A stretch of DNA of 47,402 bases from a virus. The notes under the pieces were generated by a model that was not told the DNA's origin, did not search any database, and was given only the letters and a program-made list of their open reading frames with translations. The stretch spans positions 1 to 47,402 of the IMG/VR virus record IMGVR_UViG_3300049432_000020. One strand, written 5' to 3'. This document shows, in pieces, positions 5,763 to 41,680 of this stretch (its first letter is position 1; each line of letters starts with the position of its first letter). The position numbers were made by a program, and so were the translations under genes.

Positions 5763-5920
5763 GTACGGCGCGCGTGTTTTGGGGAGTGTTCCTGATCCTG
5801 CTATGCGTCATAGGCGCGCTCGATTACTTCGTGCGGGGCGTGGACAACGCGCTCATACTGCTAGCCCTCACGGCCAGCGGGTCACTCGGGATCGGCCTGT
5901 TGTATGGGCGCGTAGACTAG
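5759..5920 (+). CDS. Small two-helix membrane protein (53 aa)
   Basis: A GTG start at 5759 overlaps the previous stop by 4 bp. Two hydrophobic segments are visible (VFWGVFLILLCVIGALDYFV and ALILLALTASGSLGIGLLYG) separated by a short charged loop. It is the last rightward gene before the terminator at 5947. Size and topology would also suit a holin-like protein, but it is remote from the endolysin. Confidence 0.65.
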   Translation: MSTARVFWGVFLILLCVIGALDYFVRGVDNALILLALTASGSLGIGLLYGRVD

Positions 5921-20927: not shown

Positions 20928-23900
20928 ATGGCCGAAGAGACCGTCACGATAACCGCCGCACTCAAAGACCAAATGAGCGCCCCCCTTGACCAGGTGAAGA
21001 AGAAGGTCGACGGGGTCACTGACGCCGTCGTGACCGGCTCGCGGAAGCAGTCGGCCGCGGCGGATAAGTCGACGGCGCAGATCGGCGGGTCGATCGGGAA
21101 ACAGAACCGGTTATTCGCCGGGATGCAGTCGACCGTGTCGCGGGCCACGACCGGCACGTCGCGGCTGTTCTCTGGCATGGCCGGGGCGATCCGCCGCAGC
21201 CTAGATGGACTGCCCGAGTACAGCAGCAAGCAGGGCGAGAAGACCGCCAGCGCCTTCGGGAACTCGATGAAGTCCGGCATGAAGCTCGCGGCGGGCGCGG
21301 TCGCGACGTACTTCGGCGCGCAAATGATCGGCGGCTTCGTCGCCGAAGCGGGTAGGGCGTCTGACGCGACCGATAAGTTCAAGGCGACGATGAACTTCGC
21401 CGGGATCGACACGAAAGGAATCGACGCCGCGACGAAGGCTTCGAAGGCCTACGCCGATCAGACCGTCTACGACCTGCCCACGATTCAGAACACCTTCGCG
21501 CAGTTGGCCTCGAACGGCGTCAAGGGCTACGAGGGTATTACGAAGGCCGCGGGTAACCTGAACGCCGTCGCGGGCGGCAACGCCGAGACCTTCAAGAGCG
21601 TTTCGCGCACCCTGACGCAGTCAGCCGGCGCGGGCAAACTCATGACTGAGGATTGGAACATGCTCGCCGACGCGATCCCCGGCGCGTCCGGGCCGCTGCA
21701 GAAGGCCATGAAAGAAGCCGGCGCCTTCGAGGGCAACTTCAAAAAGGCGATGGAAAACGGCGAGATCAGCGCCGACGAATTTCAGTCGGCGATCATGAAG
21801 CTCGGAAATCAGCCGATCGCTGTCGAAGCCGCGAAGTCGACGAAGACCTTCGAAGGCGCGCTCGGCAACCTGAACGCGACGATCAACTCGAAACTCATGT
21901 CGGCGCTGGACAAGATCAAGCCCGCCGCGACGATAGCTATCGGCGCCCTGTCGACCGGTCTCGGGAAGGCTTTGGACTGGGCCGGCGACGCCGCGCAGGG
22001 ACTCTATGACCTGATCGTAAAGGGCGACTTCAGCGGCGCGTTCTCCCGTGCGTTCAACGTCGAAGAAGACAGCCCCCTCGTTGATCTGCTGTTCGATCTC
22101 CGCGAAGCCGCCGTGAAGCTGCCCGACCTGGTCGGGAAGGTAGCGACTAAACTCTACGAACTGCGCACCCCGATCGGGATTATCGTCGGGCTGATTACCG
22201 CCGTGTTCATCCCGCACTGGGCCGCACTCGCGACCGCCGCGCTGCTCAGCGCCGGGAAGCAGAAGACCGCGTGGATCATCACGCAAACACAGGCGACGAA
22301 AGCCGCCGCGGTCCACTCGGGCGCGGTCATGGTGATGATCGGCGGCTGGATCGCACTCGGCGCTCAGGCAACATGGCACGCGCTGAAGGTCGCCGCGGCA
22401 TGGCTGATCGCGATGGGACCGGTCGGCTGGATCATCGCCGGGCTGGTCGCTATCGGCGCCGCCCTTGTCTGGGCCTACAACAATGTCGATTGGTTCCGGG
22501 CCGGGGTTGACGCCGCGTTCAAGTGGATCGGCGAAGCCGTCCAGAATGTCGGCAAGTGGTTCACCGAAGCCTTCCAGAATGTCGTGAACTGGTGGAACAC
22601 GACCCTGCTGCCCGCGATACAGGCCGTCGGCAAGTGGTTCACCGACGTCTTCAACGGTGTCATCGGCTGGTGGAACGGCACGCTGCTGCCCGCGATCTCC
22701 GCGGTCGGTCAATGGTTCAGCGACATGTTCACGCAGGTCGGTAATTTCCTGCGCGACTTCGTCGGGTTCTTCGTCGACGGCTGGGGTATGCTCGTCGACT
22801 TTTTCAACGGCGTCCTGATGCCCGCGATTCAGGCCGTCGGCGACTTCTTCGCCCCGATTCTGGACTGGATCAACCGGCTGATCTGGAACGCGATGACGAT
22901 CGCCGTGTTCCTGTTCCAAAAACTCGTGGACTTCTGGAACGGTGTGCTGCTGCCCGCCGTCCGCGGCCTCGCCGACTGGTTCACGTCGGTCTTTACCTGG
23001 CTTTGGGAGGGTGTGCTGAAGCCGATGATCGACAACACGGTCGCGGGGTTCCAAGCCCTCGGCGATTTCCTGGCGACTATCTTCAATTGGATCTGGACGT
23101 TCGCTATCCGCCCGGTCGTCGACTTCATCGTCGGCGCGTTCCGGTCCCTCGTCGATTTTTGGAACCTGACCCTGATCCCGGCGTTCCAAGCCGTCGGGGA
23201 CTTCATCGGGACCGTCATGAACTGGATCTACACGACCCTGATCAAACCGGTCATCGACTTCATCGTCGCCGCGTTCCGCTCGATCGTGGACTTCTGGAAC
23301 CTGACCCTGATCCCCGGCCTGCAGGCCCTCAGCGATTTCATCGGCACGACCATGACGTGGATCTACGAAACCCTGATCAAACCCGTCATCGACCTGATCG
23401 TCGCGGCCTTCACCACCCTAACTGACTTCTGGAACAACACCCTCTCGCCGATGATCACGACCGTCGCGGGATGGTTCTCCGACACGATCGGCGGCGCGAT
23501 CAACGGGGTCGGGGACTTTATCGACGACCTGAAGAAAGGCTTCGACGCGTTCATCAAGTTCTGGTCTGACACGCTGAAGCCCGTCGTCGACGCGATCGCC
23601 GACGCGTTCAACATCGTGAAGGACGCGATCAACGGCGCCCTGGACGGCATCGGGAAGTTCGCGAACAACCCGCTCGGCGGCATTCAGGACATGCTCGGCA
23701 TACAGAAGGACGAGAACGGGCAGGGCATCATGCCCACGAACAGCGGCGGCGGCGTCTACCCCGGCAACGGTGTCCGGTTCGCCGGGGGCGGCGTCCTCGG
23801 CGGCTACGCCCCGGGCCGCGACTCGATCCTCGCCCGCCTGTCCCCGGGCGAGTCCGTCCTGGTACCGGAACTGACCCGGGCGATCGGGCCGCAGAACATC

Positions 23901-39626: not shown

Positions 39627-39953
39627 ATGGAACCCGACATTATGCCCCGCGAAAGCGAAGTCAGCATCACCCTTTACTCGCAGCCTGGTTGTGTCCAGTG
39701 CAACGCGATCAAACGCAAGTTCAAGGCCGAAGGGCTGGTCGAAGGCGAAGACTTCACCATCGTCGACGTGTCCCTGCCCGAGAACGAAGGCGACCTGCTC
39801 GCGATCAAGTCACTCGGCTACCTGAAGGTACCGGTCACGTTCGTCAACGACGACCACTTCGAAGGCTACGACGTGAACAAGATCGCCGACGCGATCGCCC
39901 GGCAGCGCCGCACGAAGCTGCATGTCGTACCCGACCTGGCCGTCGCCGTATGA
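39627..39953 (+). CDS. nrdH: NrdH-like glutaredoxin (108 aa)
   Basis: A thioredoxin-fold redoxin with the active-site pair C22-V-Q-C25 after ITLYSQPG, the cis-Pro region YLKVPVTFVND, and the typical C-terminal helix. NrdH proteins donate electrons to class Ib ribonucleotide reductase and so raise dNTP supply. No phage reductase gene was seen, so it would serve the host enzyme. An internal ATG at 39642 is an alternative start. Confidence 0.9.
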   Translation: MEPDIMPRESEVSITLYSQPGCVQCNAIKRKFKAEGLVEGEDFTIVDVSLPENEGDLLAIKSLGYLKVPVTFVNDDHFEGYDVNKIADAIARQRRTKLHVVPDLAVAV

Positions 39954-40054
39954 GCGCCGAGACGGTCGACGTCAGGACCGCCGAGAAAGCCGAACGCTGC
40001 CCCGCCTGCCGCATGTTCATAACCAACTCGCAACCGGACTGCCGATGTAGCTGA
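39950..40054 (+). CDS. Tiny zinc-finger-like protein (34 aa)
   Basis: The ATG overlaps the nrdH stop (ATGA). The peptide ETVDVRTAEKAERCPACRMF ends DCRCS, giving one CPAC and one CRC pair, enough for a single zinc site. Too short for firm calls. It ends before the terminator at 40070. Confidence 0.5.
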   Translation: MSAETVDVRTAEKAERCPACRMFITNSQPDCRCS

Positions 40055-40069
40055 CCAGGCCCGCAGAAC

Positions 40070-40104
40070 GCCGCCTAGCCCCTTTACCGGGCTGGGCGGC
40101 TTTT
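40070..40104 (+). terminator. Intrinsic terminator after nrdH block
   Basis: A 12-bp stem, GCCGCCTAGCCC (40070-40081) with GGGCTGGGCGGC (40089-40100), one T-G pair, followed by TTTT. It ends the block begun at 36020. Confidence 0.9.
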
Positions 40105-40119
40105 GCCGTCTGATTGATT

Positions 40120-40148
40120 TTGACGGTTCTAACATTCGTGTATAGTGA
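40120..40148 (+). promoter_or_regulatory. Promoter of the replication block (operator half in spacer)
   Basis: TTGACG (40120-40125) with TATAGT (40141-40146, 15-bp spacer) or TAGTGA (40143-40148, 17 bp). The operator half GTTCTAAC (40126-40133) sits in the spacer rather than at the start site, unlike the other copies. The leader contains AGGAAAGGAAAG before the ATG at 40181. Confidence 0.6.
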
Positions 40149-40180
40149 CTAGGACAGGGATAGGAAAGGAAAGTACAGCA

Positions 40181-40441
40181 ATGACAAGCACCGAATGGGA
40201 ACACCGACCAGGCCCCGAGCGCGAGAAATACCGCGATCTCGTCGAACACCTGAAAGCGCACCCCCGCGAATGGGTAAAGGTACGCACCGCCCCGAGCGAC
40301 GCCGCAGCATGGTCAGCCGCGTATCAGATCAACACCGGCCGCAGGGCCGCATTCCGGCCCGCTGAAGACTTCGAAGCGTACACAGCCGGCCCCGACGTCA
40401 TGGCCCGCTACATCGGCAAAACCGACCCGAAAGGCGCCTAA
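40181..40441 (+). CDS. Hypothetical protein preceding the initiator (86 aa)
   Basis: The ATG at 40181 follows a strong GGAAAGGAAAG. The product (ERPKYRDL-like EREKYRDLVEHLKAHPREWV; AAWSAAYQINTGRRAAFRPA) is mixed-charge with a C-terminal GPDVMARYIGK. It heads the replication operon; function unknown. Confidence 0.75.
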   Translation: MTSTEWEHRPGPEREKYRDLVEHLKAHPREWVKVRTAPSDAAAWSAAYQINTGRRAAFRPAEDFEAYTAGPDVMARYIGKTDPKGA

Positions 40442-40446
40442 CCCTC

Positions 40447-41346
40447 ATGGCCCGTATACGGCAGATCAAGCCCGAGTTCTGGTCGTCACCATCGACCGCC
40501 AGCGCTTCGGCAGTCGCGCGGCTGCTGTTCATTGCTATGTGGAACTGGGCCGACGACAGCGGCCACGGAACGGCGAACCTGAAGGAACTCGAAGGCTTCG
40601 CATTCCCGCACGACGACGTCGCAGAACTCAGCGGCGGAAAATGTCGGAACTTCCGACACTGTGTAGCGGAAGTTGCGGAGTGCTTCGGAGTGGTCTTCTA
40701 CAACGTCCGCGGACGCATGTATTACGAGATCCCGTCCTGGCAGAACCACCAGCGCAACGAACGGCTCGCTAAGGGCAAGTTTCCCCTGCCCGCAGAGGGC
40801 GAAATCGTTGAAATGACGCGGGATTTAGACCCTAGTGTCGGAAATTCTCGGAAAGTGTCGGAAGTTCCGACACACAATCACGGAAGTTCCGTCGCTGTAT
40901 CAGAGGAACAGAGGGTCATAGTTTCAGAGGGTCATGGGGGTGTTGTTCCGTTACGTAACTACAGTCACCAGGAACTCGCGAAACTTTCGCACAACGACCG
41001 AAACAAGATCGTCAACCGCGTGATCAGCGAATTCACCGACACCGTCCCTTCGATCAAATTCCCCTCGAAGACCCTGTCAGACCTGAAGGCGCAGATCTCG
41101 GTCAGCGTGCAGGACGGCATCGAACTGCAGCACATCGCCCGCGGTCTCGAACTCTGGAACGAAGCAGGCTACCCCGCGACCACGCTGCACACGTCCATCA
41201 TGCAAGCGCAGCGCGAAGCCAACGGCGGCAACGCCTACGGCTCACCCCGCCCCCGACGCGCGACAGGAACCGAACGCGCAATCGCAACCCTTGACCTCGC
41301 AACCCAAATCCAGCAGGAAGAAGAAGACCACGATGTTGCTTTCTGA
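40447..41346 (+). CDS. Replication initiation protein, winged-helix type (299 aa)
   Basis: The N-terminus (MARIRQIKPEFW, ARLLFIAMWNWADDSGHGTA) is the typical start of phage O-like/DnaD-like initiators, whose winged helix binds the origin. A flexible linker (about 125-165) follows, and a C-terminal helical region (TLSDLKAQISVSVQDGIELQ) likely contacts the helicase loader. The gene contains iteron-like palindromes, as lambda O contains its origin. It overlaps the loader gene by 14 bp. Confidence 0.82.
   Translation: MARIRQIKPEFWSSPSTASASAVARLLFIAMWNWADDSGHGTANLKELEGFAFPHDDVAELSGGKCRNFRHCVAEVAECFGVVFYNVRGRMYYEIPSWQNHQRNERLAKGKFPLPAEGEIVEMTRDLDPSVGNSRKVSEVPTHNHGSSVAVSEEQRVIVSEGHGGVVPLRNYSHQELAKLSHNDRNKIVNRVISEFTDTVPSIKFPSKTLSDLKAQISVSVQDGIELQHIARGLELWNEAGYPATTLHTSIMQAQREANGGNAYGSPRPRRATGTERAIATLDLATQIQQEEEDHDVAF
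40642..40935 (+). other. Candidate replication origin (iteron-like palindromes inside the initiator gene)
   Basis: TGTCGGAA-C-TTCCGACA (40642-40658) and GTGTCGGAA-G-TTCCGACAC (40855-40873) are perfect palindromes of one unit. ACGGAA-G-TTCCGT (40880-40892) is a shorter copy, and TGTCGGAAATTC (40836-40847) plus CGGAAGTTGC (40667-40676) are partial copies. A direct repeat CAGAGGGTCAT (40909-40919 and 40925-40935) and locally lower GC follow. The segment encodes the protein's linker. Origin function is inferred from the lambda O parallel. Confidence 0.65.
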
Positions 41347-41680
41347 GACAGCGAAGATCCTCGCCAAAGTCCAGTTGCTCGACAACCGCACCGTCGACCG
41401 CATCACCGTCGATGCATGGCACGAAGTCATCGGACACCTGGACTTCCGCGACGCCCTTGCCGGACTCGCCGCCCACCGCGCCGAATCGACCGACTACCTG
41501 ATGCCGGCACACCTGATCACGCAGGCAAGGAAAGCCCGCAGACTGCGCGAAGTCCACGAATCCCGGCAGCGGGCGATCGACGTCGCCCGCGAACGCGAAG
41601 CACTCGGCCCGCACGCAACCCCGATCCAAGTCGCCGAACTCCGCAATTCACTGAACACCGTACTGAAGTCAGTCAGCTAA
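41333..41680 (+). CDS. Helicase loader, G39P-like (115 aa)
   Basis: The ATG at 41333, within the initiator's end and after AGGAAGAAGAAG, is preferred to an upstream frame start. The pattern NRTVDRITVDAWHEVIGHLD, FRDALAGLAAHRAESTDYLM, PAHLI is that of the SPP1 G39P loader/inhibitor family (helix, T-x-x-A-W, then the Pro-containing turn). It would load the host or a phage replicative helicase onto the origin. No helicase gene was seen, so host DnaB is the likely partner. Confidence 0.75.
   Translation: MLLSETAKILAKVQLLDNRTVDRITVDAWHEVIGHLDFRDALAGLAAHRAESTDYLMPAHLITQARKARRLREVHESRQRAIDVAREREALGPHATPIQVAELRNSLNTVLKSVS

What the first reader, a model, noticed from the sequence alone, without database searches (positions are those of the whole stretch)
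40642..40935. Iteron-like origin embedded in the initiator gene
Repeated perfect palindromes of TGTCGGAA-N-TTCCGACA, shorter copies and a direct repeat CAGAGGGTCAT cluster in the linker-coding part of the initiator gene, where GC falls locally. Lambda and many relatives keep their origin inside gene O. Palindromic rather than plain direct iterons are unusual for this class and imply a dimeric initiator.
Basis: partly seen in the sequence, partly recalled or inferred. Interest (0 to 1): 0.72.

Follow-up and report, generated by a model that had tools for sequence, protein, structure and literature searches.

The report
Replication origin inside phage initiator gene
A phage related to Arthrobacter phages appears to carry its DNA replication start site inside the gene for the protein that starts replication; this arrangement is known from phage lambda and staphylococcal plasmids, but here many relatives also share a one-stranded repeat array and a distant matching site, neither of which I found described.

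Summary
The repeats are real. Two perfect 17-bp palindromes (40642, 40856), two partial copies (40836, 40878) and a direct-repeat block lie in the gene 40447-41346, a phrog_2149 replication initiator. They exceed synonymous-shuffle expectation, and this is the top inverted-repeat cluster of the 47.4-kb record. Relatives show the pattern is DNA-level and built like an origin. Most of 131 non-redundant homologs carry, on the coding strand only, a tandem array of GGA-starting 5-8 bp units behind lineage-specific iterons in linker codons. A matching remote iteron sits near codon 65 in about half, helically phased to the linker iterons (the window itself is off phase). Iterons travel with the N-terminal domain, not the C-terminal one. 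Best reading: a lambda/RepA_N-like origin, with the array as unwinding or strand-specific loading element (inferred). No replication was measured. Possibly new: the strand-specific array and the phased remote site.

The parts
40447..41346 (+). replication initiator gene, 299 aa (phrog_2149, 'replication initiation protein')
   Evidence: phrog_2149 E 1.1e-48 over residues 2-290; tblastn to 282 phage records, several annotated replication initiation protein / RepA-like initiator
40447..40830 (+). codons 1-128: N-terminal winged-helix-like DNA-binding domain
   Evidence: AF2 block pLDDT mostly 76-98; nearest chains RepA_N-type initiator domains 4pql, 4pt7, 5kbj, Z 5.8-6.3; Foldseek rank 1-2 5kbj, E 0.24
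40642..40658 (.). remote iteron R1, perfect 17-bp palindrome TGTCGGAACTTCCGACA, codons 66-71
   Evidence: loop at residues 62-68 in the model
40664..40680 (.). possible second remote box R2 (10/16), 22 bp from R1, as L3 is from L2
   Evidence: 43-nt repeat D1 40635-40677 / 40849-40891, 79% identity; score by itself at background level
40836..40852 (.). linker iteron L1, imperfect (12/16)
40856..40872 (.). linker iteron L2, perfect palindrome (19 bp with flanks, 40855-40873)
40878..40894 (.). linker iteron L3, partial (12/16; core CGGAAGTTCCG 40881-40891)
40901..40940 (+). decayed tandem array of five 8-bp units in register (CAGAGGAA/CAGAGGGT/CATAGTTT/CAGAGGGT/CATGGGGG), counterpart of (CAGGGGAA)n in relatives
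   Evidence: best match in the whole record, both strands, to a unit matrix built from other phages; p 0.001 against synonymous shuffles; gap-free register with Persistence, Cashline, Matteo
40837..40947 (+). codons 131-167: predicted disordered linker, almost coextensive with L1-L3 and the array
   Evidence: pLDDT under 50 at residues 131-167
40810..41019 (.). local GC minimum, about 0.50
40966..41337 (+). codons 174-297: helical C-terminal domain, presumed replisome-recruiting part
   Evidence: model; some family members have a DnaT-like C-terminal domain
41333..41680 (+). next gene (ORF also open from TTG 41291); phrog_6055, unknown function, very weak helicase-loader match
   Evidence: phrog_6055 E 2.9e-14; phrog_2289 helicase loader only E 0.07

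Best explanation
The segment 40642-40940 is the phage's replication origin, carried inside the initiator gene. The N-terminal winged-helix domain, probably as a dimer, binds the palindromic iterons R1 and L1-L3 (inferred). Bound initiators would bring remote and linker iterons together by looping or wrapping, strain the 50% GC segment and open the DNA at the adjacent array. The array, a run of GGA-type 5-8 bp units on the coding strand in relatives and decayed here, would serve as unwinding element or as strand-specific landing site for the initiator or helicase loader, much as lambda's AT-rich region or DnaA-trios do. The variable C-terminal domain would then recruit host helicase or primase. 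Shown by sequence: DNA-level conservation, fixed order, strand specificity, iterons inherited with the N-terminal domain, helical phasing in the family. Inferred: protein binding, looping, opening and loading.
For: Initiator family match. Repeats exceed synonymous shuffles (z over 3 on at least one measure) in 96% of 48 initiator genes against 20% of 157 other ORFs; lambda gene O passes the same test and lambda P does not. GGA chain of 5 or more on the coding strand in 73% of 131 homologs, 0% on the template strand, 0.2% of outside stretches; chain of 4 or more 81% against 9% after synonymous shuffling. Searching viral DNA with 24 nt of the array alone, of 80 loci held 76 lie in this initiator superfamily, always on the coding strand. 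Array kept where the C-terminal domain is missing (L089, L090, L094, L105, L153; in L192 beyond the stop codon). Remote copy of the gene's own iteron near codon 65: match of 10 nt or more in 52%, none of the control means; distance to linker iterons periodic at 10.5 bp, p 0.0005 also after thinning. Iterons follow the N-terminal, not the C-terminal domain (partial correlation 0.39 against 0.05). Window: linker codons coextensive with L1-L3 and array. Precedents: lambda O and pSK41 Rep.
Against: No replication or binding data. GC skew does not switch. No DnaA box in the window apart from one 1-mismatch site far away at 5839. The window's array is decayed (no GGA chain) and its remote spacing (214 and 194 bp from the box positions) is about 0.3-0.4 turn off the family phase. 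The hairpin found 3' of many arrays is not significant here. Iteron/N-terminal co-inheritance could be physical linkage alone. Structural matches to RepA_N domains are weak (Z under 8).
Confidence: 0.84

Rival explanations
1. The palindromes are operators: the initiator or another dimeric regulator binds them to control its own gene or downstream genes, with no origin function.
For: Palindromes are typical repressor sites; initiators often autoregulate; the N-terminal domain also resembles BlaI/MecI- and Fur-type winged helices.
Against: Sites lie 195-450 bp inside the gene; no sigma-70-like promoter found at 39900-41400 (a weak test for this host); it does not explain the adjacent strand-specific array, its near-exclusive tie to initiators, or the similar placing of the origins in lambda O and pSK41 Rep. 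Both roles may coexist.
Confidence: 0.08
2. It is an origin, but the array works through nucleic-acid structure: the G-rich non-template strand gives an R-loop or G-quadruplex during rightward transcription, which opens or primes the origin. This competes only with the loading step of the best explanation.
For: Motifs of four runs of 3 or more G cover 1.4% of coding-strand bases in initiators against 0.05% outside, with no enrichment on the template strand; units GGGGAACA, GGGATA, GGGAAA fit.
Against: Units such as GGATCAA and GGACCTA, and the window's own decayed array, have few runs of 3 G; only 49 of 131 homologs hold the full motif; the CCC family has the G-rich side on the template strand.
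Confidence: 0.2
3. The array and linker repeats are neutral slippage products in an unconstrained protein linker, or a recombination joint for swapping domains.
For: The linker is disordered; domain exchange joints lie at or near the array.
Against: One strand only and one trinucleotide foremost of 64, non-triplet periods, array kept without a C-terminal domain, and remote iterons phased at 10.5 bp are not expected from slippage. A joint may be a by-product.
Confidence: 0.06
4. The array acts in the mRNA, as SD-like GGA stretches that pause ribosomes at the domain boundary.
For: GGA lies on the mRNA strand and at the domain boundary.
Against: The array persists where there is no second domain, up to or past the stop codon; the second initiator family has CCC on the mRNA strand at the same place.
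Confidence: 0.04

Closest known systems
Bacteriophage lambda ori in gene O
   Same: Iterons inside the initiator gene at codons about 117-145; each iteron an inverted repeat, O a dimer; opening element next to the iterons (PMC7466680)
   Different: Lambda has an AT-rich region and no GGA chain; a remote iteron was not looked for in lambda; sequence relation to O not shown
RepA_N plasmid initiators (pSK41 Rep and relatives)
   Same: Winged-helix N-terminal domain, origin in the central linker codons, separate C-terminal replisome-recruiting domain; pPR9 shows N-terminal domain plus origin replaced by a phage type (PMC5703833); nearest solved structures 4pql, 4pt7, 5kbj
   Different: No detectable sequence match; the passages of that review that I read mention no strand-specific G array or phased remote site
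DnaA-trio and DnaD recognition element
   Same: Short strand-specific motifs beside double-stranded initiator sites (PMC10797057, PMC10201434)
   Different: Other sequences, trio period 3, chromosomal; the analogy for the GGA array is inferred
RepA-mediated origins of extrachromosomal mycobacterial prophages
   Same: Phage initiator with N-terminal HTH; the authors suspect the origin lies just upstream of or inside repA (PMC7157519)
   Different: They identified no repeats there; relation of that RepA to this family not tested here

Membership tests
phrog_2149 phage replication initiators | profile match over most of the protein | tested here: met
   E 1.1e-48, residues 2-290
phrog_2149 phage replication initiators | GGA-unit array on the coding strand after the iterons (trait found here) | tested here: inconclusive
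   strict GGA chain absent in the window, but a decayed 8-bp register array is the record's best match
lambda-type origin within the initiator gene | cluster of similar inverted-repeat iterons in the gene's middle | tested here: met
lambda-type origin within the initiator gene | iterons bound by the gene's own product as a dimer | not testable with these tools
   needs a binding assay
lambda-type origin within the initiator gene | low-melting element beside the iterons | tested here: inconclusive
   GC 0.50 against 0.65, less extreme than an AT-rich tract
RepA_N (PF06970) initiators | sequence match to the RepA_N domain | tested here: not met
   no Pfam family for the protein; only DnaT among 43 homologs
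RepA_N (PF06970) initiators | N-terminal fold | tested here: inconclusive
   among the top VIA rows but Z only 5.3-6.3; Foldseek E 0.24
any in-gene origin | supports autonomous replication | not testable with these tools
   needs cloning

The most novel reading that the evidence does not exclude
A superfamily of phage initiators in actinobacterial, proteobacterial and other hosts uses an undescribed origin type: palindromic iterons, a helically phased remote iteron in the codons of a loop of the DNA-binding domain, and a directional array of GGA units on one strand that is read as single-stranded DNA to load the helicase on a fixed strand (a phage counterpart of DnaA-trios).
Probability: 0.35. 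Interest if true: 0.82.

Novelty: new variant of a known kind. Interest (0 to 1): 0.62.

Why it matters
If right, origins can be read straight from sequence in hundreds of phages and prophages that have no mapped origin, and the variable segments of their initiators are shaped by the DNA sites they must encode. The strand-specific array gives a direct test of how phage helicases are placed on one strand, and joint exchange of N-terminal domain and iterons explains how related phages change replication specificity.

Tried and rejected
GC skew as origin marker: nearly all negative, no switch. DnaA boxes: none near the gene in the window; an inverted pair just after the array only in L032 and L042. 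Hairpin after the array: enriched in the family (0.39 against 0.15) and in the CCC family (0.64 against 0.15) but not in the window. Remote site in the CCC family: not found. Rfam: nothing at gathering score. Sequence search of the PDB: nothing useful. G-quadruplex as sole explanation: full motif in only 49 of 131. Papers with the array sequence: no relevant one; absence in this library is not proof of novelty. The 40664 box is at background level by score. Families not listed by the fold search are not excluded.

Full report
Observation. The window is a whole virus record of 47,402 bases, related to Arthrobacter phages Jinkies, Hirko and Vibaki. The palindrome TGTCGGAA-N-TTCCGACA is perfect at 40642 and 40856 and nowhere else with up to 3 mismatches. 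Partial copies lie at 40836 and 40878 (12/16 each). The gene has 40 inverted 8-mer pairs against 13.4 expected when synonymous codons are shuffled, two perfect palindromes arise in 4 of 1000 shuffles, and 40601-40900 is the top of 943 windows for inverted 9-mers.

The gene. 40447-41346 is a phrog_2149 replication initiator with relatives annotated as replication initiation or RepA-like proteins. A model built on 46 sequences gives an N-terminal domain (1-128), a disordered linker (131-167, pLDDT under 50) and a helical C-terminal domain. The linker codons, 40837-40947, are almost exactly L1-L3 plus the array. R1 falls at a loop (residues 62-68) of the N-terminal domain. The nearest solved structures for residues 3-100 are RepA_N-type initiator domains (4pql, 4pt7, 5kbj), but with middling Z of 5.8-6.3, level with general winged-helix repressors.

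Family test. In 48 initiator genes the same repeat statistic is high in 96% against 20% of 157 other ORFs of the same loci. Lambda gene O, a known origin-bearing gene, passes; lambda P does not. Each lineage has its own palindrome. In Cashline the core CGGAACTTCCG lies at nearly the same place as in the window but in another reading frame, so the amino acids do not explain it.

The array. Behind the iterons most homologs have a tandem array of units starting with GGA, period 5, 6, 7 or 8. A chain of five or more GGA spaced 5-8 nt is on the coding strand in 73% of 131 non-redundant homologs, on the template strand in none, and in 0.2% of outside stretches; GGA ranks first of 64 trinucleotides. 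Homologs that end after the N-terminal domain keep the array at the end of the gene, followed in several by an SF2-like helicase gene (by eye); in L192 it lies past the stop codon. So it is a DNA element, not a protein linker. The window's array is decayed: five 8-bp units in exact register at 40901-40940, the best match of the record to a matrix from other phages, aligned without gaps to Persistence, Cashline and Matteo.

Remote iteron. The region of codons 12-90 shares a match of 10 nt or more with the same gene's linker in 52% of homologs; controls with other genes' linkers or synonymous shuffles average 8 nt; positions cluster at codons 57-76. Distances to the linker copies are periodic, best at 10.5 bp out of 4-30 bp, p 0.0005, also after thinning to 34. 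This suggests that the two lie on one face of the helix and are bridged. The window, at 214 and 194 bp, is off this phase, so the claim is for the family.

Exchange. Iteron words are shared when N-terminal domains are alike even if C-terminal domains differ (for example L027/L035/L038), and not when only the C-terminal domain is shared (L013/L046). The window gene itself looks like a mosaic: 40600-40801 is 74% identical to Gordonia phages, 40901-40960 77% to Arthrobacter phage Persistence. At the same locus Jinkies has another initiator family with palindromes and a CCC array, and Hirko/Vibaki a third initiator with direct repeats just after the gene. Linkage alone could give part of this pattern.

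Interpretation. Origins inside initiator genes are known: lambda O, whose iterons are each inverted repeats and whose initiator is a dimer (PMC7466680), and pSK41 Rep, where the origin is in the linker codons and, in pPR9, N-terminal domain and origin differ together (PMC5703833). What I could not find described is the strand-specific array and the phased remote iteron (limited library). The array may be an unwinding element, a single-strand landing site like DnaA-trios or the DnaD element, or an R-loop/G-quadruplex former. I favour the landing or unwinding role because GGA spacing is more general than G-runs. This step is inferred.

Limits. No binding or replication data exist here; GC skew and DnaA boxes give no support in the window; statistics over homologs are not fully independent even after thinning.

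Noticed in passing
L213-L284 and L043 (Jinkies gp48 type, phrog_2447): A second initiator family carries a CCC array (CCCGA, CCCGAA, CCCAT units) on the coding strand in the linker, often preceded by palindromes and followed by a hairpin with a CTAAAG- or CTGACG-like loop.
   Followed up: partly
L103, L104, L194, L097 and others, just 3' of the GGA array: Hairpin within 80 nt after the array in 39% against 15% expected; role unknown, perhaps priming or loading.
   Followed up: partly
L044:12060-12180, L045:9190-9320: Hirko and Vibaki have a third initiator type (phrog_3171) with direct repeats like GAAACCCTTCGATAAA just after the gene, a likely separate origin type at the same locus.
   Followed up: no
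L089, L090, L094, L105: Initiators reduced to the N-terminal domain, ending soon after the array, followed by an SF2-like helicase gene: a possible different way of recruiting the helicase.
   Followed up: partly
L032 and L042, codons 170-178: Perfect inverted pair of DnaA boxes (TTATCCACA) soon after the array in two prophage-type contigs.
   Followed up: partly
L037, L038: The reading frame seems to change after the array, giving a different C-terminal sequence: indels at the array, real or sequencing error.
   Followed up: no
window 22351-23500: Strongest direct-repeat region of the record.
   Followed up: no
window 10494 and 12078: The only other perfect palindromes with arms of 8 or more (GTTACTGGCCAGTAAC, CGGCGAAGGCTTCGCCG).
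   Followed up: no
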